Positions 43,874 through 58,086 of a stretch of DNA of 64,000 bases are shown in pieces. Every line of letters starts with the position of its first letter. The first letter of the stretch is position 1. The position numbers and the translations under genes were made by a program. Where the stretch lies: the NCBI RefSeq assembly GCF_004001245.1, contig NZ_AP018724.1, forward strand, positions 310,001-374,000. The letters run 5' to 3'. The stretch comes from Sulfurivermis fontis. Lineage in GTDB: Bacteria; Pseudomonadota; Gammaproteobacteria; Thiohalomonadales; Thiohalomonadaceae. The notes under the pieces were generated by a model. The model had not been told where the DNA came from and ran no database searches. It was given only the letters and a program-made list of their open reading frames with translations.

Positions 43874-44037
43874 GGAAGGTCTGAATAAGTCCATCCTGGA
43901 CTTTTCAGACCACGCCAAGCGAAAAGTGTGATTTTCGCTTGGCTTCATTTTTCAACGACTTATCGTCGTTGAAAAATGGCGGCACATCCCTGTGCCGCGG
44001 AAGCTCTGAACTTATTCAGAGCTTCCTCAGAGCTTCC
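43874..44037 (-). mobile_element. multi-hairpin MITE-like element, copy A
   Basis: Same element as copies B and C, in reverse orientation. It begins (plus strand) GGAAGGTCTGAATAAGT and ends with ACTTATTCAGAGCTTCC. An 11-bp end piece (GGAAGCTCTGA, minus strand) is duplicated. The flanks share TAA only. It fills the space between the convergent MFS and xthA genes and abuts the xthA stop codon. Confidence 0.85.
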
Positions 44038-44808
44038 CTAACGCTGAAACTCGGCGATGACCGGCGCGTGATCCGAGGGACGCTCCAACTTGCGCGTTTC
44101 CCTGTCGATGGTGGCGCTGACGCATTGCGCGGCCAGCGGCGCACTCGCCAGGATGTGGTCGATGCGCAGGCCGATGTTGCGGCGGAAGGCATTCATGCGG
44201 TAATCCCACCAGCTGTAACTTTTTTCCGGCTGCTCGAACAGGCGGAAGGTATCCACCAGCCCGGCGCCGAGCAGGCGTTGGAAGGCGGCGCGTTCCGGCG
44301 GTGAGAACAGCACGCTGTTCTCCCACGCCGCCGGGTCGTACACGTCGCGCTCATCCGGCGCGATATTGAAATCGCCCAGCACCACCAGATTGGGTGTGCG
44401 CAGCAACTGCGCTTCGACGAAGCTCTGCAACTTTTCCAGCCAGTCCAATTTGTAGGCGTACTTGTCCGAGCCCACTTCCTGGCCGTTGGGCACGTACAGG
44501 TCCAGCACATAGACATCGCCGAATTGCGCCCCGAGTACGCGCCGCTGCGGGTCATCGAGGCCGGGCAGGTCGGTGATGATGTCGCCGCCGGCGGCGGTGC
44601 GGCTGAGCAGGGCGACGCCGTTGTAGGTCTTTTGCCCGGAGTACAGCGCCTGATAACCGGCGGCTTCGAGCTCCGCACGCGGAAACTCGTCATCGGGCAT
44701 TTTGGTTTCCTGCAGGGCGAGCACATCGGGCTGCTGTGCCGCGAGCCAGTCCAGCACCTGGGGCAGACGCACACGCAGCGAGTTGACGTTCCAGGAGGCG
44801 ATTTTCAT
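44038..44808 (-). CDS. xthA: exodeoxyribonuclease III
   Basis: 256 aa. AP endonuclease / 3'-5' exonuclease of base-excision repair. MKIASWNVNSLRVRLPQVLDW at the start, LQETKMPD (E34 metal ligand), and LGDFNIAPDERDVYDP near 148 identify the family. The C-terminal WWDYRMNAFRRNIGLRIDHIL ends with SDHAPV, the catalytic histidine. Confidence 0.95.
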   Translation of the reverse strand: MKIASWNVNSLRVRLPQVLDWLAAQQPDVLALQETKMPDDEFPRAELEAAGYQALYSGQKTYNGVALLSRTAAGGDIITDLPGLDDPQRRVLGAQFGDVYVLDLYVPNGQEVGSDKYAYKLDWLEKLQSFVEAQLLRTPNLVVLGDFNIAPDERDVYDPAAWENSVLFSPPERAAFQRLLGAGLVDTFRLFEQPEKSYSWWDYRMNAFRRNIGLRIDHILASAPLAAQCVSATIDRETRKLERPSDHAPVIAEFQR

Positions 44809-44818
44809 AGCGACAGAT

Positions 44819-44892
44819 ACAAGTCGAAAGATACAAGAGAAAAGTGAGAATCAGTGCGGCAGCGTCGCCACGCCACTTGTTACTTGTATCTG
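44819..44892. repeat. heptad-type inverted repeat upstream of xthA
   Basis: GATACAAGTCGAAAGATACAAG faces CACTTGTTACTTGTATC (44873-44889). It is the most diverged of the four TCACTTG-type loci. It lies between xthA and the SH3-domain gene. Confidence 0.6.
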
Positions 44893-44895
44893 CGG

Positions 44896-45423
44896 TTAAA
44901 GTCGGAAGCCGCCGTGGCGCTCGCGGATACGCCAGTCCAGCCACATGATGCCGAGGATGAAGCCGGTCACCAGAGACACCAGCACGGCGAAGAACATCCA
45001 CCACGAGCGTGACACCTGATGATTCTCCTGCGCAGCGCGGGTCTGCTCGGCGAGCTGCCGGCGCGTGTTGTCCAGTTCTCTTACGGTGCGCTCATGCTGC
45101 TGCGCCAACGACAGCAGCAACACCTGGGCCGGCATGTCTTCCTGGAGCTGGCGCTGATGGATCCAGCCTTCGCTGCCATCCGGCAGGCGCACGCGCACGA
45201 AATCGCCCTGGCGCGTCAGTACCTGCAAGGCGGTGCCGGTGGGTAACTGCTGCATCGGCTTGCCGGCGGCGCGCGGCGCCGGATACAGGTCAGCGGCGAG
45301 GCGATCGGTGACATACAGCGTGGCGGCGGCGCCGGCCTGAAACGGCAGTAGCAGACAGAGCAGCACCATGGCTGCGCCTTGCCGATTTCCTCTCCACCGC
45401 TGCAGGCCAAATAATCGTCTCAT
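44896..45423 (-). CDS. TIGR04211-type SH3 domain protein
   Basis: 175 aa from ATG 45423. It has a signal peptide (ending AGAA, about residue 34), then a bacterial SH3 domain (LYVTDRLAADLYPAPRAAGK, VRLPDGSEGWIHQRQL, 36-95). A coiled coil (100-135) and a C-terminal membrane helix (WWMFFAVLVSLVTGFILGIMW) follow. Typical of the YgiM-like envelope proteins linked to cell-wall stress. Confidence 0.88.
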   Translation of the reverse strand: MRRLFGLQRWRGNRQGAAMVLLCLLLPFQAGAAATLYVTDRLAADLYPAPRAAGKPMQQLPTGTALQVLTRQGDFVRVRLPDGSEGWIHQRQLQEDMPAQVLLLSLAQQHERTVRELDNTRRQLAEQTRAAQENHQVSRSWWMFFAVLVSLVTGFILGIMWLDWRIRERHGGFRL

Positions 45424-45546
45424 TCCAATTAGCTTACTATCACGGTGAAGTTTTCGGCAAACCGGCATCCGTCCTGGTGGCGGTGGCAAGGCACGCTGCT
45501 TGCGCCCTGCACAGCAGGCGAGAGAGGGTGGGTACTGTGGCGGTGC

Positions 45547-45572
45547 AAAAAAAACGCGCCCCGAAGGGCGCG
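45547..45572 (-). terminator. intrinsic terminator of the sox operon
   Basis: On the minus strand CGCGCCC-TTCG-GGGCGCG is followed by eight T residues. It is a classic rho-independent terminator about 55 bases past the soxZ stop. Confidence 0.92.
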
Positions 45573-45627
45573 GGCAAACCCCATGCCTGTGGAAGGGAAG
45601 GAGGTCCCGATGAAAGCGGTGGTGAGA

Positions 45628-45942
45628 TCAGCGTATTTCCTCAGTGGCGCTGTCCTTCTCGCCCTTGTTGTCGACCCAGGCGAGGGCGACCTTGTCCCCC
45701 TTCTTGGCGCCGGAGAACTCGATGGAGAGATAGGGGTTGGCGGAGATGGCGGCGCCCCAGGCGGAGGTCAGCACGTTCTTGCCGTTGTGGGTGCAGACGA
45801 CTTCCTGGATGAAGTGGGCCGGGATGACCTGGCCGGTCTTCTTGTCCTTGCGCTGGCCGGTCTCCATCGGATGCTTGATGAGCGCCTTGACGGTGCAGAC
45901 ATCGCCCTTGAGGGTGGCGCGGATCTTGATTGAATCTGCCAT
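45628..45942 (-). CDS. soxZ: sulfur-oxidation carrier subunit SoxZ
   Basis: 104 aa, all beta, no signal peptide (carried out with SoxY by Tat). IKIRATLKGDVCTVKALIKHPMETG is the family start. The later FIQEVVCTHNGK and SIEFSGAKKGDKVALAWVDN fit SoxZ, which supports SoxY as the swinging substrate carrier for thiosulfate in the periplasm. Last gene of soxXAYZ. Confidence 0.95.
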   Translation of the reverse strand: MADSIKIRATLKGDVCTVKALIKHPMETGQRKDKKTGQVIPAHFIQEVVCTHNGKNVLTSAWGAAISANPYLSIEFSGAKKGDKVALAWVDNKGEKDSATEEIR

Positions 45943-45984
45943 TTAGATAGTCCTCTGTATCAATTCGTCAGTGTGTGCCGTGGC

Positions 45985-46461
45985 TTAACCGCCGCAGCCG
46001 CCGATGGTGACCTTCACTTCCTTGCGGCCGGCATACAGGGTGCCGCCGGCCTTGACCACGGCGACCACGTTGGAGGTCTTGCCCATCTTGACGCGGGTGG
46101 AGACGGTGCCGAGGGCATTGGGGGCCAGGTTGAAGACGGCGGTGAGGGGAGTGCCGTTCTGCTCGACGAACAGGCTGATGGACTCGATGCCCTTGATGTT
46201 GGCATTGACGGTGACCGGGACCACGGCGCCGTTCTCGGCGATGTCGGGGGCCTTGATCTCGATGTCGTTGCTGGGGGTGGTCATGTCGGCGTTGTAGACG
46301 CCCTTCAGGCTGGCAGCGATGTCCTTGGCCTCGAAGGCCTCCTTGGGCCAGGCGGCCAGCACCTGACGGGGGGAGAGCAGGCCGGCGCCGACGGCGACGG
46401 CAACGGCGCTGCCGGCCAGGGTGCCCTTGAGAAAGATCCGGCGTTGACGGAAAGCGTTCAT
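45985..46461 (-). CDS. soxY: sulfur-oxidation carrier protein SoxY
   Basis: 158 aa. It has a twin-arginine leader (QRRIFLKGT, residues 7-15). The carboxy-terminal GGCGG motif (end of the chain, VTIGGCGG) presents the cysteine to which the sulfur substrate is covalently bound. It is upstream of soxZ by 42 bp with GAGG before the start. Confidence 0.96.
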   Translation of the reverse strand: MNAFRQRRIFLKGTLAGSAVAVAVGAGLLSPRQVLAAWPKEAFEAKDIAASLKGVYNADMTTPSNDIEIKAPDIAENGAVVPVTVNANIKGIESISLFVEQNGTPLTAVFNLAPNALGTVSTRVKMGKTSNVVAVVKAGGTLYAGRKEVKVTIGGCGG

Positions 46462-46524
46462 AAATCGTTTACCTCAATAGCTGTGATGGAAGCGAGGGGG
46501 CGGCGTGCCGTCCCCCTCATGGTT

Positions 46525-47397
46525 TCAGTCGCGGGTGGAGGGGGCCACCACCGGATAGCCGTTGGACAGGGCGTTCAGGAACACCTCGAGGTCGGTGTAT
46601 TCCTGGCTGCCGATCTTGAGCGGCTGGACGCCGGCGTTGCGGTTGCACTCGGTGAAGCGCACATGCAGCGACTGCAGTTCGTCCTTGGAGCGCCAGGTGG
46701 GCCAGTGGGCGGCGTCGCCGAAGTGGGTGGTCGGCGTCTGGCCGCGCAGCTTGAGGCCGACGATCTGCGTGTGGCAGGTGGCGCAGGAGAAGTTGGTCCA
46801 GCCGGCGCGGGTGTGGAACAGCTTCATGCCCTTCTCATAGGACTCCTTCAGCGGCCCCTTGCTCACGTCCACCTTCAGCGGCATGCCGGCGCTGAAGCTG
46901 GCGATGTACACGGATACCGCGCTGTTGTCGTAACTGCCGTTGAGCAGGGTCATGCCCTCCTTGGCGGCGCAATGCTCGATCATCGCCTCCAGGCCGACGA
47001 CCTTCTTCAGGTCGTTGTTGTACTGCGGGTAGTGGTTGGCGCGCAGACCGCGCAGATCGTTGTCCTTGGCCCCCAGGCACTTGGCGAAGCGGCCCTTGGC
47101 GTTGAGCTGCTGGTACAGCGCCTCACCGCGATCCAGGGCGATGTGGCCGCCGTGCAGGGAGTCGTTGTAGGGCTCGTCCTTGAACTTCCAGTTCAGCTTC
47201 CACTGGTTGTCGCCGCTCAGCTGCGACTCGTCCAGCCGTTCCGGGTCGCGCCAGTAGCGATAGGTGTTGGTGGTGTCGGCCGCGACGTTCGGCTCATAGA
47301 ACGGCATCGGCGTGTATTCGCGGTACGGCGCCGGGTTGGCCAGGGCGGCCGTGGACGCCAGCAGCAGCGTCAGGGCGGTGGTTCTTGCTAAGCGCAT
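46525..47397 (-). CDS. soxA: L-cysteine S-thiosulfotransferase subunit SoxA, single-heme type
   Basis: 290 aa, signal peptide to about residue 20. One heme motif, CATCH (205-209), and the catalytic cysteine C251 (FTECNRN) with its loop. In the N-terminal half the place of the first CxxCH has only C107 and C143, which could form a disulfide, so this is a monoheme SoxA. It works with SoxX to attach thiosulfate to SoxY. Confidence 0.95.
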   Translation of the reverse strand: MRLARTTALTLLLASTAALANPAPYREYTPMPFYEPNVAADTTNTYRYWRDPERLDESQLSGDNQWKLNWKFKDEPYNDSLHGGHIALDRGEALYQQLNAKGRFAKCLGAKDNDLRGLRANHYPQYNNDLKKVVGLEAMIEHCAAKEGMTLLNGSYDNSAVSVYIASFSAGMPLKVDVSKGPLKESYEKGMKLFHTRAGWTNFSCATCHTQIVGLKLRGQTPTTHFGDAAHWPTWRSKDELQSLHVRFTECNRNAGVQPLKIGSQEYTDLEVFLNALSNGYPVVAPSTRD

Positions 47398-47433
47398 TGT
47401 CTCTCTCCTCGGAATTCGTGGGGCGGCGGCCGC

Positions 47434-47976
47434 TTATTGCAGGGACATCAGGTAGGCCACCACATCGGCGATCTCCTGAGTGCTCAGCACCTCGTTGGTA
47501 CCGTAGGGCGGCATGGCGGTATTGGGGTTGTTGATGCGCGGGTCGAATACCTGCTGGTAGGTCCAGACGGTATCGCGGCCATGCTGCGAGTAGCGCACCA
47601 GCGGGGGGCCGGCGGTACCGCCCTGGGCATCGCCCGGCAGCAGGTGGCAGGCGTGGCAGTTGCCCTTCGTGGTGGTGGTGGCGATCTCCTTGCCGCGGGC
47701 CGGGTCGCCGTTCAGGGGCTGCGGCGCCTGCACCGGCTCGGGGCGGCGGGTGGGCAGGGTTTCCTCGTAGCTCAGGCTGGGCCAGCGCGACAGATCCTGG
47801 CGGTGGTTCTCGTATTTCAGCTCGCCGCTGTTGGCAATGGGCTTGGGCCAGAGGGTCTTGTTGGGGGTCGAGGCGTCGTAGAGCAGATTGGACGGCAGCG
47901 TTCTGTCGGCGGCGATGGCGCCGGCGCCCGCAACGAGCAGCGCGAGCGCGCCCACCGTGGTTATTATCTTGAACAT
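47434..47976 (-). CDS. soxX: sulfur-oxidation cytochrome c subunit SoxX
   Basis: 180 aa with signal peptide (residues 1-23). One heme c site CHACH (107-111) and a distal methionine in NTAMPPYGTNEVL. Partner of SoxA. First gene of soxXAYZ; the promoter should be in 47980-48140. No soxB, soxCD or regulator is in the window. Confidence 0.95.
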   Translation of the reverse strand: MFKIITTVGALALLVAGAGAIAADRTLPSNLLYDASTPNKTLWPKPIANSGELKYENHRQDLSRWPSLSYEETLPTRRPEPVQAPQPLNGDPARGKEIATTTTKGNCHACHLLPGDAQGGTAGPPLVRYSQHGRDTVWTYQQVFDPRINNPNTAMPPYGTNEVLSTQEIADVVAYLMSLQ

Positions 47977-48366
47977 CGGTTTCTCCTGCTGTATGGATTC
48001 TGGTCAACGGCGCGGGTACACGCCTGAGCAGGACAGAGCAAGGGGCGGGCCAGCCGCCGGGGAGGTGGCCGGATGGATGTTCAAGTCAATGAAAAGATGT
48101 GAATTATCGGTCGGCGCCGACGACCGTGCCGGGTATGCGCGGCGCGGGGGGCTGGGGCATTTCGCCCCAGTGAGGAAAAAGGGGTGGGGCAAAATGCCCC
48201 AGCCCTGTAACGGCTCACCCCTTAAAGTCAAAAGCCTTCAACGCAAAGACGCAAAGTGTGTGCAGTGTCGCGCAGCGTTGCGCGATTCCGCTGCGCCACA
48301 TCGCACAGCGGCGCTTCGCAGGGTTCCCCTTTGCGCTCTTCGCGTCCTTTGCGTCTTTGCGTTTAA
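47977..48366. other. sox upstream region with hairpins and CGCAAAGACGCAAAG inverted repeat
   Basis: No gene in this 390-base stretch. 48152-48170 (CTGGGGCATTTCGCCCCAG with a small bulge) and 48185-48201 (TGGGGCAAAATGCCCCA) are short stems, enclosed by AAGGGGTG / CACCCCTT. Then TTCAACGCAAAGACGCAAAG (48237-48256) is mirrored by CTTTGCGTCTTTGCGTTT (48347-48364), the familiar intergenic repeat of many proteobacteria. Copy B of the MITE sits at its right end. Confidence 0.6.
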
Positions 48367-48572
48367 GGAAGCTCTGAATAAGTTCAGAGCTTCCGCGGCA
48401 CAGGGATGTGCCGCCATTTTTCAACGACGATAAGTCGTTGAAAAATGAAGCCAAGCGAAAATCACACTTTTCGCTTGGCGTGGTTTTGTCCACGGATGGA
48501 CTTATGTCGCGCAGCCCAGGGAGGGGCGGGAGCGACCTGAAAAGTCCAGGATGGACTTATTCAGACCTTCCT
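48367..48572 (+). mobile_element. multi-hairpin MITE-like element, copy B (with 53-bp module)
   Basis: Ends GGAAGCTCTGAATAAGT and (mirrored) GGAAGGTCTGAATAAGT. It is flanked on both sides by TTAA (48363-48366 and 48573-48576). It is 206 bases, 53 longer than copy C; the extra part (about 48480-48534) is one unit of the tandem array at 57.9 kb. Five stems are present as in copy C. Confidence 0.88.
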
Positions 48573-48628
48573 TAACGCTTGTGTTTACGCCTTCCTGGGA
48601 GGGGCGGGTAGTCATTGCGCCATTCGGG

Positions 48629-49996
<1,368 letters not shown>

Positions 49997-50077
49997 CGGG
50001 CGTTGTTTTCGTGCAGTGTGCAAACGGGGGATTGGGCGCTATTCTGGTCGCATAGCGCCACACGGAGCAACCTACCC

Positions 50078-50986
50078 ATGCAACGCCGCCATTTTCTTCT
50101 CGCCCTGGCCGGGCTGCCGCTGCTGTCGCGCGCCGCGCCGCCGGCCCTGAATCCGTGGGCCGAGAGCTATTGCGTCAGCCCGTTGCGCCGCGCCGCCGTC
50201 ATGGCGCCGACCCCCGGCGGGCTGCGCTACCAGGGTACCCACATCCTCACCTATGGCGCCCTGCGCGAACTGTCCGCCAGTTACAACCGCCTCGGCCGGG
50301 GTCCGGTGGATGTCACCGGCGGCGGCTGCGATGACGGCGTGACCGGCGTGCTGCGCGGCGAGGCCGAGTTGGGCGGGCTGTGCTGCCCGGTGGAGGAGTC
50401 GCGGGCGGCCCATCTGCCGTCGCTGCTGGTGGCGCGGGACATCAAGGTGGTGGTGGCCCATCCGTCGGTGGCGGTGGACGATATCGCGCTGGAGTCCCTG
50501 CGCCGGGTGGCGCGCGGCGAGATCCGCCGCTGGTCGGAGCTGGGCGATACGGACCGCGCCATCGCCCTGGTGGTGCGCCGCCATTGTCCGGACTACCTGG
50601 AGCCGGTGCGCGGCCTGCTGCTGGACAACCGTCCCGACTGGTCGCCCCGCGCCCTGTTCGTCGAGACCGATCAGCAACTGCTGGAAACCGTGGTGCGCTA
50701 TCCGGGGGCGGTGGGCGTGGTCAGCCGCGCCCTGGCCCTGCCCTATCTCAAGGCCGGCCAGTTGCGCGCCCTGCATGTGGACGGCGTGGCGCCGCAGCGC
50801 GAGGCCGCCGAGGCCGGCGCCTATCCCCTGGTGGGGCCGCTCAATATCGTCTACCGGGAATGGGATGAGGCGCGCATGCGCGGCTTCTTCGATTTTCTCT
50901 ACAGCCCGCTCGGCGCCGCCATCATCGGCCAGGCGCTGGTGCCGGTGAGCGCGCGGGAGGCCGGTTACGGCGCCGTCGCTGTCTGA
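50078..50986 (+). CDS. periplasmic phosphate/anion-type binding protein
   Basis: 302 aa, signal peptide MQRRHFLLALAGLPLLSRA. The type II periplasmic binding fold is suggested by THILTYGALRELSASYNRLG, VDVTGGGCDDGVTGVLRGEA (PstS-like glycine loop) and VVRYPGAVGVVSRALALPYL. No transporter follows. It lies between a sigma54 response regulator and a sensor kinase, overlapping the 3' end of the kinase gene by 22 bases, and may deliver the ligand signal to the kinase. Confidence 0.8.
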   Translation: MQRRHFLLALAGLPLLSRAAPPALNPWAESYCVSPLRRAAVMAPTPGGLRYQGTHILTYGALRELSASYNRLGRGPVDVTGGGCDDGVTGVLRGEAELGGLCCPVEESRAAHLPSLLVARDIKVVVAHPSVAVDDIALESLRRVARGEIRRWSELGDTDRAIALVVRRHCPDYLEPVRGLLLDNRPDWSPRALFVETDQQLLETVVRYPGAVGVVSRALALPYLKAGQLRALHVDGVAPQREAAEAGAYPLVGPLNIVYREWDEARMRGFFDFLYSPLGAAIIGQALVPVSAREAGYGAVAV

Positions 50987-52611
50987 GGCAGTTCCACCCG
51001 GATGACGCCGCCGGGCCCCTCGCCCACGCTCACCCGCCCGCCGTGGGCATGGATCACCGCACGGCAGCTGGCCAGGCCCAGGCCGCTGCCGCCGCGCTTG
51101 CTGGTGTAGAACGGCTCGAACAGGTGCTCCCGCGCCTCGTCCGAGAAACCCGGCCCCGCGTCCCTGATCTCGATCTCGCCATAACCGCTCAGTGGCCGCA
51201 CCGCGACGTGCAGGCGGCCCTGCGGCGCCGCCTCCTGGCCGTTGTTGAACAGATTGGCCAGGGCCTGCTCCAGGTGGTAGGGGTCGGCATCGACCCAGAC
51301 TTCCCCGCCGGTCGTCACCTGCGGCGGCGGCGCCTCGGGGCGCCCCACCTGCCAGTGCTCGACGCAGCCGCGCACCAGCGCGCCCAGCTCCAGGCGCTGC
51401 CGGCGCAGGCGGATGGGGCGGCCGTATTGCAACAGCAGATCCACCGTGGTGCGGCAGCGGCCGCAGTGATGCAGGATGCGCTGCACGTCTTCGGCCAAGG
51501 GGCTGGCGGCGGGGAGTTCGCGCAGCATCAGCCGCGCCATGTTGTCGATGACGGTGATGGGGTTGTTGATGTCGTGGGCGACGCGCGCCGCCATGCGGCC
51601 GATGCCGGACAGCCGCTCCATTTCCTGCATGCGTTCCAGATCCCCCAGCATGGCGTTGAAGGCGTGAACCAACTGGGCCACCTCGTGGCTGCCCGATACC
51701 TCCAGCCGGCGGCTGCCGAACTCGCCGCGGCCCACGGCAGCGGCGGCCTGGGCCAGGGTGCCCAGCGGCCGCAGCTCGCGGTACAGCACCGCGAGCAGGG
51801 CCAGCAGCAGCAGGCCGCCCGCCACCAGCAGGCTCAGCACCAGCAGGGTCTGCACCTTGGCCAGCGCCTGTCCCACCGTGTCGGGGAGGGCCACGGACAG
51901 CCAGGCGGAGCCGCCGGTCACATCCAGTGGGACGTACACGCCGTTGTGGGGCGCATTCTGCCGTGCGGCCACGATCCCCACCGCGGCGTCGCTGCCGAAG
52001 GCCGGTTCGAGCACGGCATCCAGCGGCCGCGCCAGTTGCAGCCAGGCCAGCAGCGCGGCGTTGCGCAGCAGCGGCGCGGTGCTGACGGCCCAGACATGGC
52101 CTTCGTGCCAGACAAGGTGGATGGTCTTGCTGCCGGGTGCCGCGGGGTCGATGGGCAGCAGGGGCAGTTCGCCGCCGATGCCGGCGACGGCGCGCCCGTC
52201 GCGGTCGAACAGCGCCAGCGACGGGACGTTGAAGGCCTGGGACAGTCGCTCCAGCGCGGCCAGGGGGTGGCTGCGTTCGCCCTCCAGATACAGGTGGTAG
52301 TACGCGGCGTTGGCCAGCTCGGCGTCGTTGGCGAGCAGCTCCGCCAGCCGCTCCAGCGCTACCCGTTCCTGGGCCACCAACCGTTCCGCCTGGGTCGCCA
52401 GCCGCTCCTGGCGTTCGGTGTGTACGGTGCGGAACTGTTCGCTGACCAGGTGATCGATGCCGACGAACAGGGCGGCGATGGTGGCGACCACGGCCACCGT
52501 CAGGATCAGCGCCACCCGCAGCAGCAGCGAGTCGTGCAGGCGGATGCCCAGCCGCGGCCTCGCGCGTGGCGGTGGAGCGAGATCAGCAGTCGTCAGATGC
52601 CGGTGTGACAT
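50965..52611 (-). CDS. membrane sensor histidine kinase
   Basis: 548 aa. Helix at about 30-50, a periplasmic double-Cache-like domain (60-250), helix at about 253-275, and HAMP (RELRPLGTLAQAAAAVGRGEF). The DHp phospho-His is in RVAHDINNPITVIDNM near 344. The N box is NLFNNGQEA, with G boxes DAGPGFS and GSGLGLA. It probably phosphorylates the response regulator at 48629; the intervening binding protein may be its co-sensor. Confidence 0.9.
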   Translation of the reverse strand: MSHRHLTTADLAPPPRARPRLGIRLHDSLLLRVALILTVAVVATIAALFVGIDHLVSEQFRTVHTERQERLATQAERLVAQERVALERLAELLANDAELANAAYYHLYLEGERSHPLAALERLSQAFNVPSLALFDRDGRAVAGIGGELPLLPIDPAAPGSKTIHLVWHEGHVWAVSTAPLLRNAALLAWLQLARPLDAVLEPAFGSDAAVGIVAARQNAPHNGVYVPLDVTGGSAWLSVALPDTVGQALAKVQTLLVLSLLVAGGLLLLALLAVLYRELRPLGTLAQAAAAVGRGEFGSRRLEVSGSHEVAQLVHAFNAMLGDLERMQEMERLSGIGRMAARVAHDINNPITVIDNMARLMLRELPAASPLAEDVQRILHHCGRCRTTVDLLLQYGRPIRLRRQRLELGALVRGCVEHWQVGRPEAPPPQVTTGGEVWVDADPYHLEQALANLFNNGQEAAPQGRLHVAVRPLSGYGEIEIRDAGPGFSDEAREHLFEPFYTSKRGGSGLGLASCRAVIHAHGGRVSVGEGPGGVIRVELPQTATAP

Positions 52612-52656
52612 GGTGCGGCTCTCCGCATTGGCGATGGAGAGCAGTCTATCCGATGT

Positions 52657-54696
52657 CTACCCGGCCATGCCGCTGTGGCGCAGCAGGGCATCGATGCTCG
52701 GCTCGCGGCCGCGGAACTCCACGAACAGCTCCATCGGTTCGCGCGCGCCGCCCTGTTCCAGGATCGCCTCCATGAAGGCCAGCCCCGTCGCGCGATTGAA
52801 CACGCCTTCCTCCTCGAAGCGGGCGAAGGCGTCGCTGGCCAGCACCTCGGCCCACTTGTAGCTGTAATAACCGGCCGAGTAGCCGCCGGAGAAGATGTGG
52901 GCGAAACCGTGCTGGAAGCGGTTGTAGTGCGGCGGGCGCACCACCGCCACCTCGGCACGCACCTCGTCGAGGATCTGCTGGATGCGGCCGCCCTGTTGCG
53001 GGTCGTATTCCAGGTACAGGCGGAAGTCGAACAGCGCGAACTCCAGCTGCCGCACCATCTGCATGCCGGCCTGGAAGTTGCGCGCCGCCCACATCTTGTC
53101 GAACAGCTCCTGCGGCAGCGGCTCGCCGGTTTCGTGGTGACGGGCGAACAGGTCCAGCGCCGCGCGCTGCCAGCACCAGTGCTCCAGGAACTGGCTGGGC
53201 AGTTCCACCGCGTCCCACGCTACACCGCTGATGCCGGCGACGCCGGCGACCTCGATGCGGGTGAGCATGTGGTGCAGGCCGTGGCCGAATTCGTGGAACA
53301 GGGTCTGCACCTCGTCGTGGCTGAGCAGGGCCGGCTTGCCGTCCAGCGGCGGCGTGAAGTTGCAGGTGAGATAGGCCACCGGCGTCTGCCGCGTGCCGTC
53401 GGGCAGGCGGCGGGCGCGAATGCACTCGTCCATCCAGGCACCGCCGCGTTTCTTCGGCCGCGCGTAGAGGTCGAGATAGAAGCGGCCGCGCAGGCTGCCG
53501 GCGCTGTCGAAGATGTCGTAGAAGCGCACGTCCTCGTGCCAGGTCTGTACCCCCGTTACTTCGCGGATGTCCAGGCCGAACAGGCGCTGCACCACCTCGA
53601 ACATGCCGGCCACCACGCGATCGGCGGAGAACCAGGGCTTGAGGTCTTCCTGCGACAGATCGTATTTGTGCCGGCGCAGTTTTTCCGCGTAATAGTTGAT
53701 GTCCCACACGGCGAGTTCTGCCTGGCCGTGCTGTTCACGGGCATAGGCGGCGATCTCCTCCAGCTCGCCCTGCGCCATGGTGAGCGAGCGCGTGGCGAGG
53801 TCGCGCAGAAAACCGAGCACCTGTTGCGGCGTCTCCGCCATTTTGGTGGCGAGGGAATGTTCGGCGTGACTGGCAAAGCCGAGCAGCTGCGCCAGCTCGT
53901 GGCGCAGGGCGAGGATCCGCTCCATCACCGGGCCGTTGTCCCAGCGTCCCGCCTGCGGACCCTGATCAGAGGCGCGGGTACTGTAGGCGGTGTACAGCTC
54001 TTCGCGCAGGGCGCGGTCGTCGGCATGGGTCATCACGGCAAAATAGCTGGGAAAATCCAGGCCGATGCGCCAGCCGTCCTGACCCTCGCGCCGCGCCGCC
54101 TGGCGCATCATCGCCTGACTGCTGGCCGGGATGCCGGCCAGACGCTGCGCGTCGGTGATCAGGACATGCCAGCCGTTGGTGGCATCGAGCAGGTGTTCCT
54201 CGAAGCGGGCCGTGGCCTGGCTCAGTTCCTCGCTGGCCGCCTTGAAGCGCGCCTTCTGCTCTGGCGGCAGGGTCACACCGGACAGGCGGAAGTCGCGCAA
54301 CAGGTTGTCCAGGTGCTTGCGCTGGGCGATGGACAGGCGCTCGTACTCCGCGCCGTCGCGCACCGATTGCAGGGCGCGGTACAGGTCTTCGTTCTGTCCC
54401 AGCTCGGTGGCGTAGGCGCTCAGTTTGGGCAGGCAGGCGTTGTAGGCCGCACGCAGTTCGTCGGAGTTCATCACCGCGTTGAGATGGCTCACCGGCGACC
54501 AGGTGCGGCTCAGGCGGTCGTCCAGCGCCTCCAGCGGGGCGAGCAGCGTGTCCCAGCAGAACGCGCCTTGTTGCAGCAGGTGCGCGATGGCGGCGCGGTT
54601 CTCCGCCAGCACGGTGTCGATGGCCGGTTCCACATGCTCCGGTCGGATGGCATGGAACGGCGGCAGGCCGTTCATTTCCAGCAGGGGATTGGGCAT
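52657..54696 (-). CDS. prlC: oligopeptidase A
   Basis: 679 aa. M3 zinc peptidase of the cytoplasm that clears peptides and signal-peptide fragments. HEFGHGLHHM carries the HExxH zinc site near 466, with the downstream E in ELPSQFLEHW. The N-terminal helical half (NGLPPFHAIRPEHVEPAIDT) matches PrlC and not the mitochondrial-type relatives. Start 54696 has GGAGTG upstream. Confidence 0.95.
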   Translation of the reverse strand: MPNPLLEMNGLPPFHAIRPEHVEPAIDTVLAENRAAIAHLLQQGAFCWDTLLAPLEALDDRLSRTWSPVSHLNAVMNSDELRAAYNACLPKLSAYATELGQNEDLYRALQSVRDGAEYERLSIAQRKHLDNLLRDFRLSGVTLPPEQKARFKAASEELSQATARFEEHLLDATNGWHVLITDAQRLAGIPASSQAMMRQAARREGQDGWRIGLDFPSYFAVMTHADDRALREELYTAYSTRASDQGPQAGRWDNGPVMERILALRHELAQLLGFASHAEHSLATKMAETPQQVLGFLRDLATRSLTMAQGELEEIAAYAREQHGQAELAVWDINYYAEKLRRHKYDLSQEDLKPWFSADRVVAGMFEVVQRLFGLDIREVTGVQTWHEDVRFYDIFDSAGSLRGRFYLDLYARPKKRGGAWMDECIRARRLPDGTRQTPVAYLTCNFTPPLDGKPALLSHDEVQTLFHEFGHGLHHMLTRIEVAGVAGISGVAWDAVELPSQFLEHWCWQRAALDLFARHHETGEPLPQELFDKMWAARNFQAGMQMVRQLEFALFDFRLYLEYDPQQGGRIQQILDEVRAEVAVVRPPHYNRFQHGFAHIFSGGYSAGYYSYKWAEVLASDAFARFEEEGVFNRATGLAFMEAILEQGGAREPMELFVEFRGREPSIDALLRHSGMAG

Positions 54697-54713
54697 AGAA
54701 CACTCCACTCAAA

Positions 54714-54787
54714 CCAAAGAAAATCCGCAAATGAACGCGAATGTACGCAAATAAATCGCACTGGTTATTCGCATGTATTTGCGTTCA
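54714..54787. repeat. half of an inverted intergenic repeat (CCGCAAATGAACGC) split by copy C
   Basis: CCGCAAATGAACGC at 54725-54738 has its mirror as GCGTTCA (54781-54787) plus TTTGCGG (54945-54951) on the other side of copy C. Removing the element and one TTCA restores GCGTTCATTTGCGG exactly. Confidence 0.85.
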
Positions 54788-54940
54788 GGAAGCTCTGAAT
54801 AAGTTCAGAGCTTCCGCGGCACAGGGATGTGCCGCCATTTTTCAACGACGATAAGTCGTTGAAAAATGAAGCCAAGCGAAAATCACACTTTTCGCTTGGC
54901 GTGGTCTGAAAAGTCCAGGATGGACTTATTCAGACCTTCC
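54788..54940 (+). mobile_element. multi-hairpin MITE-like element, copy C
   Basis: 153 bases, the cleanest copy. Terminal inverted repeats GGAAG(C/G)TCTGAATAAGT run inward from both ends; flanking direct repeat TTCA (54784-54787 and 54941-54944). Five hairpins in order: the 5' end itself (GAAGCTCTGAA..TTCAGAGCTTC), GCGGCACAGGGATGTGCCGC, TTTTTCAACGA..TCGTTGAAAAA, CCAAGCGAAAA..TTTTCGCTTGG, and GGTCTGAA..AAGTCC-AGGA-TGGACTT..TTCAGACC. No ORF. Confidence 0.9.
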
Positions 54941-54977
54941 TTCATTTGCGGACTCCGATTTGTTGTACAGTGGGGCC

Positions 54978-57932: not shown

Positions 57933-58081
57933 TCCGGCCCTCCCTGGCCTCCGCGGCATAAGTCCATCCCTGGACAAGCGCCGCTCCCGGCCCTCCCTGG
58001 CCTCCGCGGCATAAGTCCATCCCTGGACAAGCGCCGCTCCCGGCCTTCCCTGGCCTCCGCGGCATAAGTCCATCCCTGGAC
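57933..58081. repeat. tandem repeat, three 53-bp units
   Basis: CCGG marks recur at 57934, 57987 and 58040, exactly 53 apart. Each unit contains CCTCCCTGGCCTCCGCGGCA then TAAGTCCATCCCTGGACAA, whose AAGTCCA...TGGACAA part is itself a stem. Units differ by only a few bases. The same module, reversed, is the extra segment in MITE copy B. Confidence 0.88.
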
Positions 58082-58086
58082 AAAAA

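What the first reader, a model, noticed from the sequence alone, without database searches (positions are those of the whole stretch)
43874..54940. Three-copy, five-hairpin MITE with reconstructable empty site
A 153-bp element occurs at 54788-54940 (copy C), 48367-48572 (copy B) and, inverted, 43874-44037 (copy A). All have terminal inverted repeats GGAAG(C/G)TCTGAATAAGT. Copy C is flanked by TTCA on both sides and copy B by TTAA. Removing copy C with one TTCA restores GCGTTCATTTGCGG, which is the exact mirror of CCGCAAATGAACGC at 54725. That is direct evidence of transposition. The interior is not coding but holds five well-formed stems, unusual for a MITE, so it may have an RNA role. All copies sit in intergenic gaps next to gene ends.
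Basis: partly seen in the sequence, partly recalled or inferred. Interest (0 to 1): 0.85.

Follow-up and report, generated by a model that had tools for sequence, protein, structure and literature searches.

The report
Five-hairpin IS5-type mini-transposon, ~130 copies
The repeat is a very small jumping DNA element, present about 130 times in this bacterium, that relies on another element's enzyme to move and in about one case in three sits exactly on the stop codon of a gene, so that the gene stays intact and gains a string of hairpins at its end.

Summary
The three window copies belong to a family of about 130 in a 3.25-Mb genome. Of 94 copies extracted, 78 have a perfect 4-bp target duplication, mostly YTAR, the IS5 target. 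It is an IS5-family MITE. Full-length IS5 relatives elsewhere carry its exact 17-bp end, and five full-length IS5 elements with similar ends share its genome; that these move it is inferred. (2) Five hairpins tile nearly the whole element, with some compensatory changes between lineages, but resident copies gain mostly uncompensated changes, so an RNA role is not shown. A two-way terminator is possible, untested. Closest known: MITEPsy1/ISPsy2 of Pseudomonas syringae. New member of a known kind.

The parts
54788..54940 (+). Copy C, 153-bp short form; ends GGAAGCTCTGAATAAGT / GGAAGGTCTGAATAAGT
   Evidence: one of 4 listed genome copies at 100% over 154 bp
54784..54787 (.). TTCA target duplication, left of copy C
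   Evidence: single TTCA in the empty G004 gap
54941..54944 (.). TTCA target duplication, right of copy C
54788..54815 (+). Hairpin 1 of copy C: the left terminal repeat is itself part of a 12-bp stem with 4-base loop
54816..54835 (+). Hairpin 2 of copy C: 8-bp GC-rich stem followed by CATTTTTC, terminator-like on the + strand
54836..54868 (+). Hairpin 3 of copy C: 14-bp stem whose first arm reads CATTTTTC on either strand, giving a U-tract to the hairpin before it in either orientation
   Evidence: covarying pairs
54871..54900 (+). Hairpin 4 of copy C: 12-bp stem; followed by TTCATTTTTC on the - strand, terminator-like
   Evidence: covarying pairs
54903..54936 (+). Hairpin 5 of copy C: right terminal repeat paired with its subterminal sequence
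48367..48571 (+). Copy B, 205-bp long form, flanked by TTAA on both sides (48363-48366 and 48572-48575)
48486..48534 (-). 49-bp block specific to the long form, 44 of 49 identical to the 53-bp tandem unit at 57934-58083
43874..44026 (-). Copy A, 153-bp short form, inverted; flanks not a clean duplication
44027..44037 (-). 11-bp partial element end (GGAAGCTCTGA on the - strand) directly after the xthA stop codon (TTAG), probably a remnant of another insertion
   Evidence: ORF 44038-44808; gene name from the finding

Best explanation
The repeat is a non-autonomous IS5-family element (MITE). A transposase acting in trans, most likely that of the five resident full-length IS5 elements or a close relative since lost, recognises the ends, cuts at YTAR, and each insertion duplicates those 4 bp. 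In this GC-rich genome most YTAR sites lie in intergenic DNA or at TAA/TAG stop codons, and insertion on a stop codon regenerates the stop, so copies accumulate at gene ends with little damage to genes. Shown: ends, duplications, one exact empty site, a stop-codon excess, and full-length relatives with the same end. Inferred: which transposase moves it; that the hairpin tiling is kept in the transposing source lineages because it helps mobility or makes insertions harmless, for example by ending or shielding the upstream transcript.
For: About 130 copies; 41 listed at >=97% identity to copy C (40 of 164 candidates scored). Perfect 4-bp duplications in 78 of 94 copies, 64 of them YTAR. The known IS5 target is Py-T-A-Pu, with CAAG and CTTA as rare sites (passages of PMC5493358); CAAG and CTTA each occur once here as perfect duplications. 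Exact empty site for copy C in G004. Five IS5 elements with an NF033581/PF01609 transposase, ends GGAACTTCTGCAAAAGTCC and GGATGCTCTGAACAAGTAATCC, perfect YTAR duplications in 4 of 5. L127 and L161 from other bacteria have one end matching the MITE end 17 of 17, with YTAR on both sides (identical TTAA in L161; TTAA/CTAA in L127). Two of five resident IS copies abut a MITE with only one YTAR between them, and so do the two MITEs of L018. Of 20 family genomes, only this one has the transposase at E <= 1e-60, and only this one has the left-end palindrome in large number (145 hits on both strands; G003 4, G004 5, G015 1, 16 others 0). Stop-codon excess: 25 of 64 perfect-YTAR copies on a stop against 26 of 239 non-coding background YTAR sites, odds ratio 5.3, p 8e-7; window sites alone as background, 10 of 82, p 2e-4; without the gene caller at a 160-codon cut-off, 31 of 64 vs 43 of 275, p 1e-7. 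4 of 6 near-full-length sister-species copies follow a TAG closing an open frame of 384 codons or more.
Against: The ends of the resident IS differ from the MITE ends (15 of 17 on the better end, 13 of 17 on the other; my count), so it may not be the parent or the mobiliser. 16 of 94 copies lack a perfect duplication. No transposition was observed. Stem and unpaired sites change at similar rates in resident copies, which speaks against selection on the hairpins after insertion. The gene caller is home-made and trained on the window only, and a gene split by a copy would appear to it as fragments; two copies (L064, L096) do have a gene running 11 bases into the element. The empty site is exact for one copy only.
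Confidence: 0.88

Rival explanations
1. Portable two-way transcription terminator or 3'-end stabiliser kept by the host: hairpin 2 followed by a U-tract on the + strand and hairpin 4 followed by a U-tract on the - strand end transcripts of whichever gene it lands behind.
For: 7 of the 13 terminator-like matches of the region lie inside the three window copies, each copy having them on both strands. Placement at stop codons. Covariation in helices 3 and 4: 4 pairs with changes on both sides, 17 cells, against 0 to 2 cells when the pairing is slid. No clear left/right bias at stops, 19 vs 14, as a symmetrical device would allow.
Against: The number of covarying pairs (4) is reached by 33 of 500 shuffles. 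Changes in resident copies are not concentrated in loops. Mismatch cells do not follow the transcribed strand: copies read from their left side show 8 G-U and 10 A-C, copies read from their right side 9 G-U and 2 A-C, the opposite of what selection on the transcript predicts. Young copies leave little time for selection. Placement at stops is also explained by YTAR targeting plus harmlessness.
Confidence: 0.25
2. The mobilising transposase is not the resident IS5 but a lost or unsampled IS5 element with exact MITE ends; the resident IS5 is a bystander that shares the YTAR target.
For: Ends differ, while relatives such as L127 and L161 have a 17 of 17 end. G003 and G004 have diverged copies (86-94% identity) without this transposase at E <= 1e-60.
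Against: The only family genome of 20 with the resident IS5 is also the one with the burst. Both use the same target, and two of five IS copies abut a MITE.
Confidence: 0.35
3. A host palindromic repeat (REP-like) that is not a DDE-type mobile element.
For: Hairpin-rich, intergenic, many copies; solitary left-end hairpins exist in G003 and G015 (L195, L190).
Against: Terminal repeats, 4-bp YTAR duplications and an exact empty site.
Confidence: 0.02
4. The palindromes are kept by template switching or conversion at the DNA level, not by selection on RNA or on transposition.
For: A few both-side changes recur in several copies, while most differences are uncompensated: 71 distinct mismatch types against 5 alternative Watson-Crick types in 95 copies.
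Against: U-G intermediates at column pair 55-76 in three sister-species copies fit ordinary two-step change.
Confidence: 0.2

Closest known systems
MITEPsy1 / ISPsy2 (IS5 family) of Pseudomonas syringae pv. phaseolicola (PMC3189936, 12 of 36 passages seen)
   Same: Short non-coding element tentatively IS5 (100 nt, 18-nt terminal repeats) that inserts after CTAG or YTAA and duplicates it; ends close to a full-length IS5 element; its transposition was observed there.
   Different: Few copies (5 chromosomal, 1 plasmid) against about 130 here; no stop-codon preference in the passages I saw; our element is longer, exists in two main sizes and is tiled by five hairpins.
IS5 and IS5-like elements (NF033581; plasmid hits of the resident IS are annotated ISBmu23 and ISPst7, partial matches at 72-85%)
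   Same: DDE transposase, GGAA-type ends, YTAR target.
   Different: The window elements carry no transposase gene; resident IS ends are similar but not identical.
Correia/NEMIS, RUP, ERIC and other bacterial MITEs (PMC2229807 and PMC10969869, passages seen)
   Same: Roughly 100-200 bp, often intergenic, many copies, structured transcripts.
   Different: PMC2229807 says repeat elements other than CIR contain a stem-loop made by pairing the two ends; here each end folds on itself or on its neighbour and five separate hairpins follow one another. That Correia and RUP use a TA target is recalled.

Membership tests
IS5-family MITE | Terminal inverted repeats shared with an autonomous IS5-family element | tested here: met
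   L127 and L161: one end 17 of 17, other end 15 of 17, at the ends of ~1.17-kb IS5 elements found with the transposase query. Resident IS5 ends similar only.
IS5-family MITE | 4-bp YTAR target duplication | tested here: met
   78 of 94 copies perfect 4-bp duplication, 64 of 94 perfect YTAR.
IS5-family MITE | Short, without a transposase gene | tested here: met
   153 bp (48 of 94) or 205 bp (32 of 94), the others 78-207 bp; too short for a transposase.
IS5-family MITE | Precise empty site without element and with one target copy | tested here: met
   Copy C against G004. Copy A gap without element in G004, but copy A has no clean duplication. Copy B: no orthologue at E <= 1e-100 in the 4 relatives.
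IS5-family MITE | Mobilised in trans by an IS5 transposase | not testable with these tools
   Five uninterrupted transposase frames are present; activity unknown.
REP / BIME host palindrome | No terminal repeats or target duplication (defining feature recalled) | tested here: not met
   Both are present.
Structured RNA of a known Rfam family | Match to an Rfam model | tested here: not met
   0 matches in the whole window at gathering scores; permissive threshold not run.
Intrinsic terminator | GC-rich hairpin followed by U-tract | tested here: inconclusive
   Pattern matches in the three window copies on both strands; 13 found in the region against a shuffled mean of 7.9, sd 3.0; function not tested.

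The most novel reading that the evidence does not exclude
A mobile, orientation-independent terminator: an IS5-type MITE whose hairpins and U-tracts have been shaped so that landing on a stop codon, which its target preference favours, gives the gene an immediate transcript end. The element would thereby be harmless or useful and spread to high copy, rewriting gene ends across the genome.
Probability: 0.2. Interest if true: 0.7.

Novelty: new member of a known kind. Interest (0 to 1): 0.42.

Why it matters
It shows how a 4-bp target (YTAR) in a GC-rich genome (window 64% G+C) can act as a gene-sparing rule: a minority of such sites lie in genes (6 of 88 in the window, 34 of 191 in the flanks), and at TAA/TAG stops the duplication restores the stop. 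With about 130 copies, about a third of those examined at stop codons, the genome offers a natural test of what adding the same hairpin array after many different genes does to their transcripts.

Tried and rejected
Three-copy local repeat: rejected, about 130 copies. Known RNA family: none at gathering scores. Preference for hairpins at the target, suggested by the palindromes around copies B and C: tested on 29 intergenic sites (49 of 78 perfect-duplication sites left out for lying near a gene) against 151 background sites, no difference (p 0.80). Wider target consensus: none obvious beyond YTAR in 78 sites. RNA-strand selection by mismatch type: not supported. One search was a first version of that count which failed to leave out a G-T pair of the consensus; its G-U numbers are too high and one search replaces it. 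Fewer changes in the terminal 17 bp (0.18 vs 0.51 per site) are not used as evidence, because copies were found through those ends. A search set to the order returned only the same 20 family genomes. Literature searches for a stop-codon preference of MITEs or IS5 showed no such report among the listed titles and abstract openings (open-licence library only; most listed papers were not opened); one search found no paper with all its terms.
Full report
What is there. The three window copies are real. Copies C (54788-54940) and A (43874-44026, inverted) are a 153-bp short form; copy B (48367-48571) is a 205-bp long form. C is flanked by TTCA and B by TTAA. A has no clean duplication and is followed by 11 bases of a second element end that abuts the xthA stop codon, so it looks like the remnant of more than one insertion. 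The window is bases 310001-374000 of a single 3,246,214-base contig. The 17-base end pattern occurs 137 + 130 times there at up to one mismatch, and 0 times for the reversed control, hence about 130 copies; 41 listed matches are at least 97% identical to copy C (40 of 164 first-look candidates scored, so a lower bound).

Copies examined. I fetched stretches around listed copies and extracted 94 elements with both ends: 48 of 153 bp, 32 of 205 bp, 14 of other lengths between 78 and 207 bp. The list is cut, so copies between about 2.46 and 3.01 Mb are under-represented. 78 of 94 have a perfect 4-bp duplication: TTAA 21, TTAG 20, CTAG 14, CTAA 9, ATAA 3, and eleven others once each, including TTCA, CAAG and CTTA. 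IS5 itself is reported to duplicate Py-T-A-Pu, with rare CAAG and CTTA (passages of PMC5493358). The site profile shows nothing obvious beyond YTAR.

Movement. The fetched loci of the other three relatives at this gene also show no element by BLAST, but their gap sequence differs. At copy A, G004 keeps the neighbouring gene end and has no element; the fetched xthA loci of the other three show none either. Copy B could not be tested (no orthologue at E <= 1e-100 in 4 relatives).

Family. The genome holds five near-identical elements of about 1.16 kb with a 318-aa transposase that matches NF033581 (IS5 family, 353 bits, cut-off 140) and PF01609/PF05598. Their ends resemble the MITE ends, and four of five have perfect YTAR duplications; the fifth has TTAG and CTAG. 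Two of the five abut a MITE with a single YTAR between, and so do the two MITEs of L018; three further copies abut another element end. Among 80 IS5 relatives fetched from named genomes (the best 80 of 563), L127 and L161 have one end identical to the MITE end over 17 bases, with YTAR on both sides, identical on both sides only in L161. In 20 genomes of the family only G000 has this transposase at E <= 1e-60; the left-end palindrome is found in 4 of 20 genomes, in large number only in G000.

Stop codons. With a simple codon-usage gene caller trained on the window, none of 94 copies is spanned by a gene; 45 lie between tandem, 29 between convergent and 12 between divergent genes, and 8 are unassigned. 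A gene cut by a copy could escape this test as fragments; in two copies (L064, L096) a called gene runs 11 bases into the element, so these may have changed a gene end. 32 of 94 abut a stop codon exactly: 19 on the left and 14 on the right, one of them on both. Among 64 copies with perfect YTAR, 25 are on a stop and 39 are not. Background YTAR sites (window plus 1-kb flanks, which partly overlap for clustered copies) are 26 on a stop, 213 intergenic and 40 inside genes: p 8e-7 for stops, p 3e-4 for avoidance of genes; with the window alone as background p 2e-4 and 0.04. Without the gene caller, counting only stops that close an open frame, the excess remains at 80, 120 and 160 codons (38, 34 and 31 of 64 against 84, 62 and 43 of 275; that background includes sites in genes). 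In sister species G003 and G004, 4 of 6 near-full-length copies follow a TAG that closes 411, 484, 392 and at least 384 open codons (L039, L042, L043, L231); partial copies (L040, L044, L195) were left out. Whether this is preference at insertion or survival cannot be told apart here.

Structure. Five hairpins cover all but eight bases of the short form; each terminal repeat folds on itself or on its neighbour, and the reverse strand folds about equally well. On 33 aligned copies (32 distinct: copy C and 27 other own short copies, 5 from sister species; the sixth sister copy was not included), 98.3% of cells pair and 4 pairs change on both sides in 17 cells; slid controls give 0 to 2 such cells; shuffles reach the 17 cells 0 times but the 4 pairs 33 times in 500. 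Relatedness inflates such counts. In 48 own 153-bp copies, however, stems and unpaired sites vary alike, 0.45 and 0.39 changes per site. Over 95 copies (89 own of at least 150 bp and 6 from sister species) there are 20 distinct G-U, 24 A-C and 27 other mismatch types against 5 alternative Watson-Crick types (cells 43, 29, 50 and 27), and the mismatches do not follow the strand that a neighbouring gene would transcribe (replacing). So the structure seems to have been kept between source lineages, while inserted copies look unconstrained. Hairpin 2 on one strand and hairpin 4 on the other are followed by a U-tract supplied by hairpin 3; this makes a two-way terminator possible.

Two forms. The 205-bp form carries a block that is 44 of 49 identical to the 53-bp unit repeated at 57934-58083 (best of 500 shuffles 35 against a score of 78). 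The sister-species copies seen are of the short type. Own 205-bp copies differ more from their consensus than 153-bp ones. I cannot tell which way the block moved.

Verdict. An IS5-family MITE close in kind to MITEPsy1, with a high copy number, a marked stop-codon bias and an unusual hairpin tiling. The organism's name was not determined.

Noticed in passing
window 57934-58083: Tandem array of a 53-bp unit (2.8 copies, 98% alike), 44 of 49 identical to the block specific to long-form copies. Two pattern hits 53 bp apart at genome 1269419 and 1269472 suggest a second such array (not read).
   Followed up: partly
window 48225-48366 and 54725-54796: Copies B and C each sit at the edge of a large imperfect palindrome (CGCAAAGACGCAAAG...CTTTGCGTCTTTGCG; CCGCAAATGAACGC...GCGTTCATTTGCGG). 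In G001 and G003 the same prlC-srkA gap holds a different palindrome (CTCTCGCCAAG...CTTGGCGAGAG). No general preference for hairpins at the target was found.
   Followed up: partly
L033 1-995, 2188-3507: One resident IS5 copy lies in a region with CRISPR-like repeats (GTGTTCCCCGCGCACGCGGGGATGAACCG) and other direct repeats.
   Followed up: no
L065, L067: Copies that appear nested in the loop of another copy's terminal hairpin.
   Followed up: partly
L195 about 1500; L190 1500-1527: Solitary left-end palindromes without the rest of the element, in G003 and in G015 of another genus.
   Followed up: no
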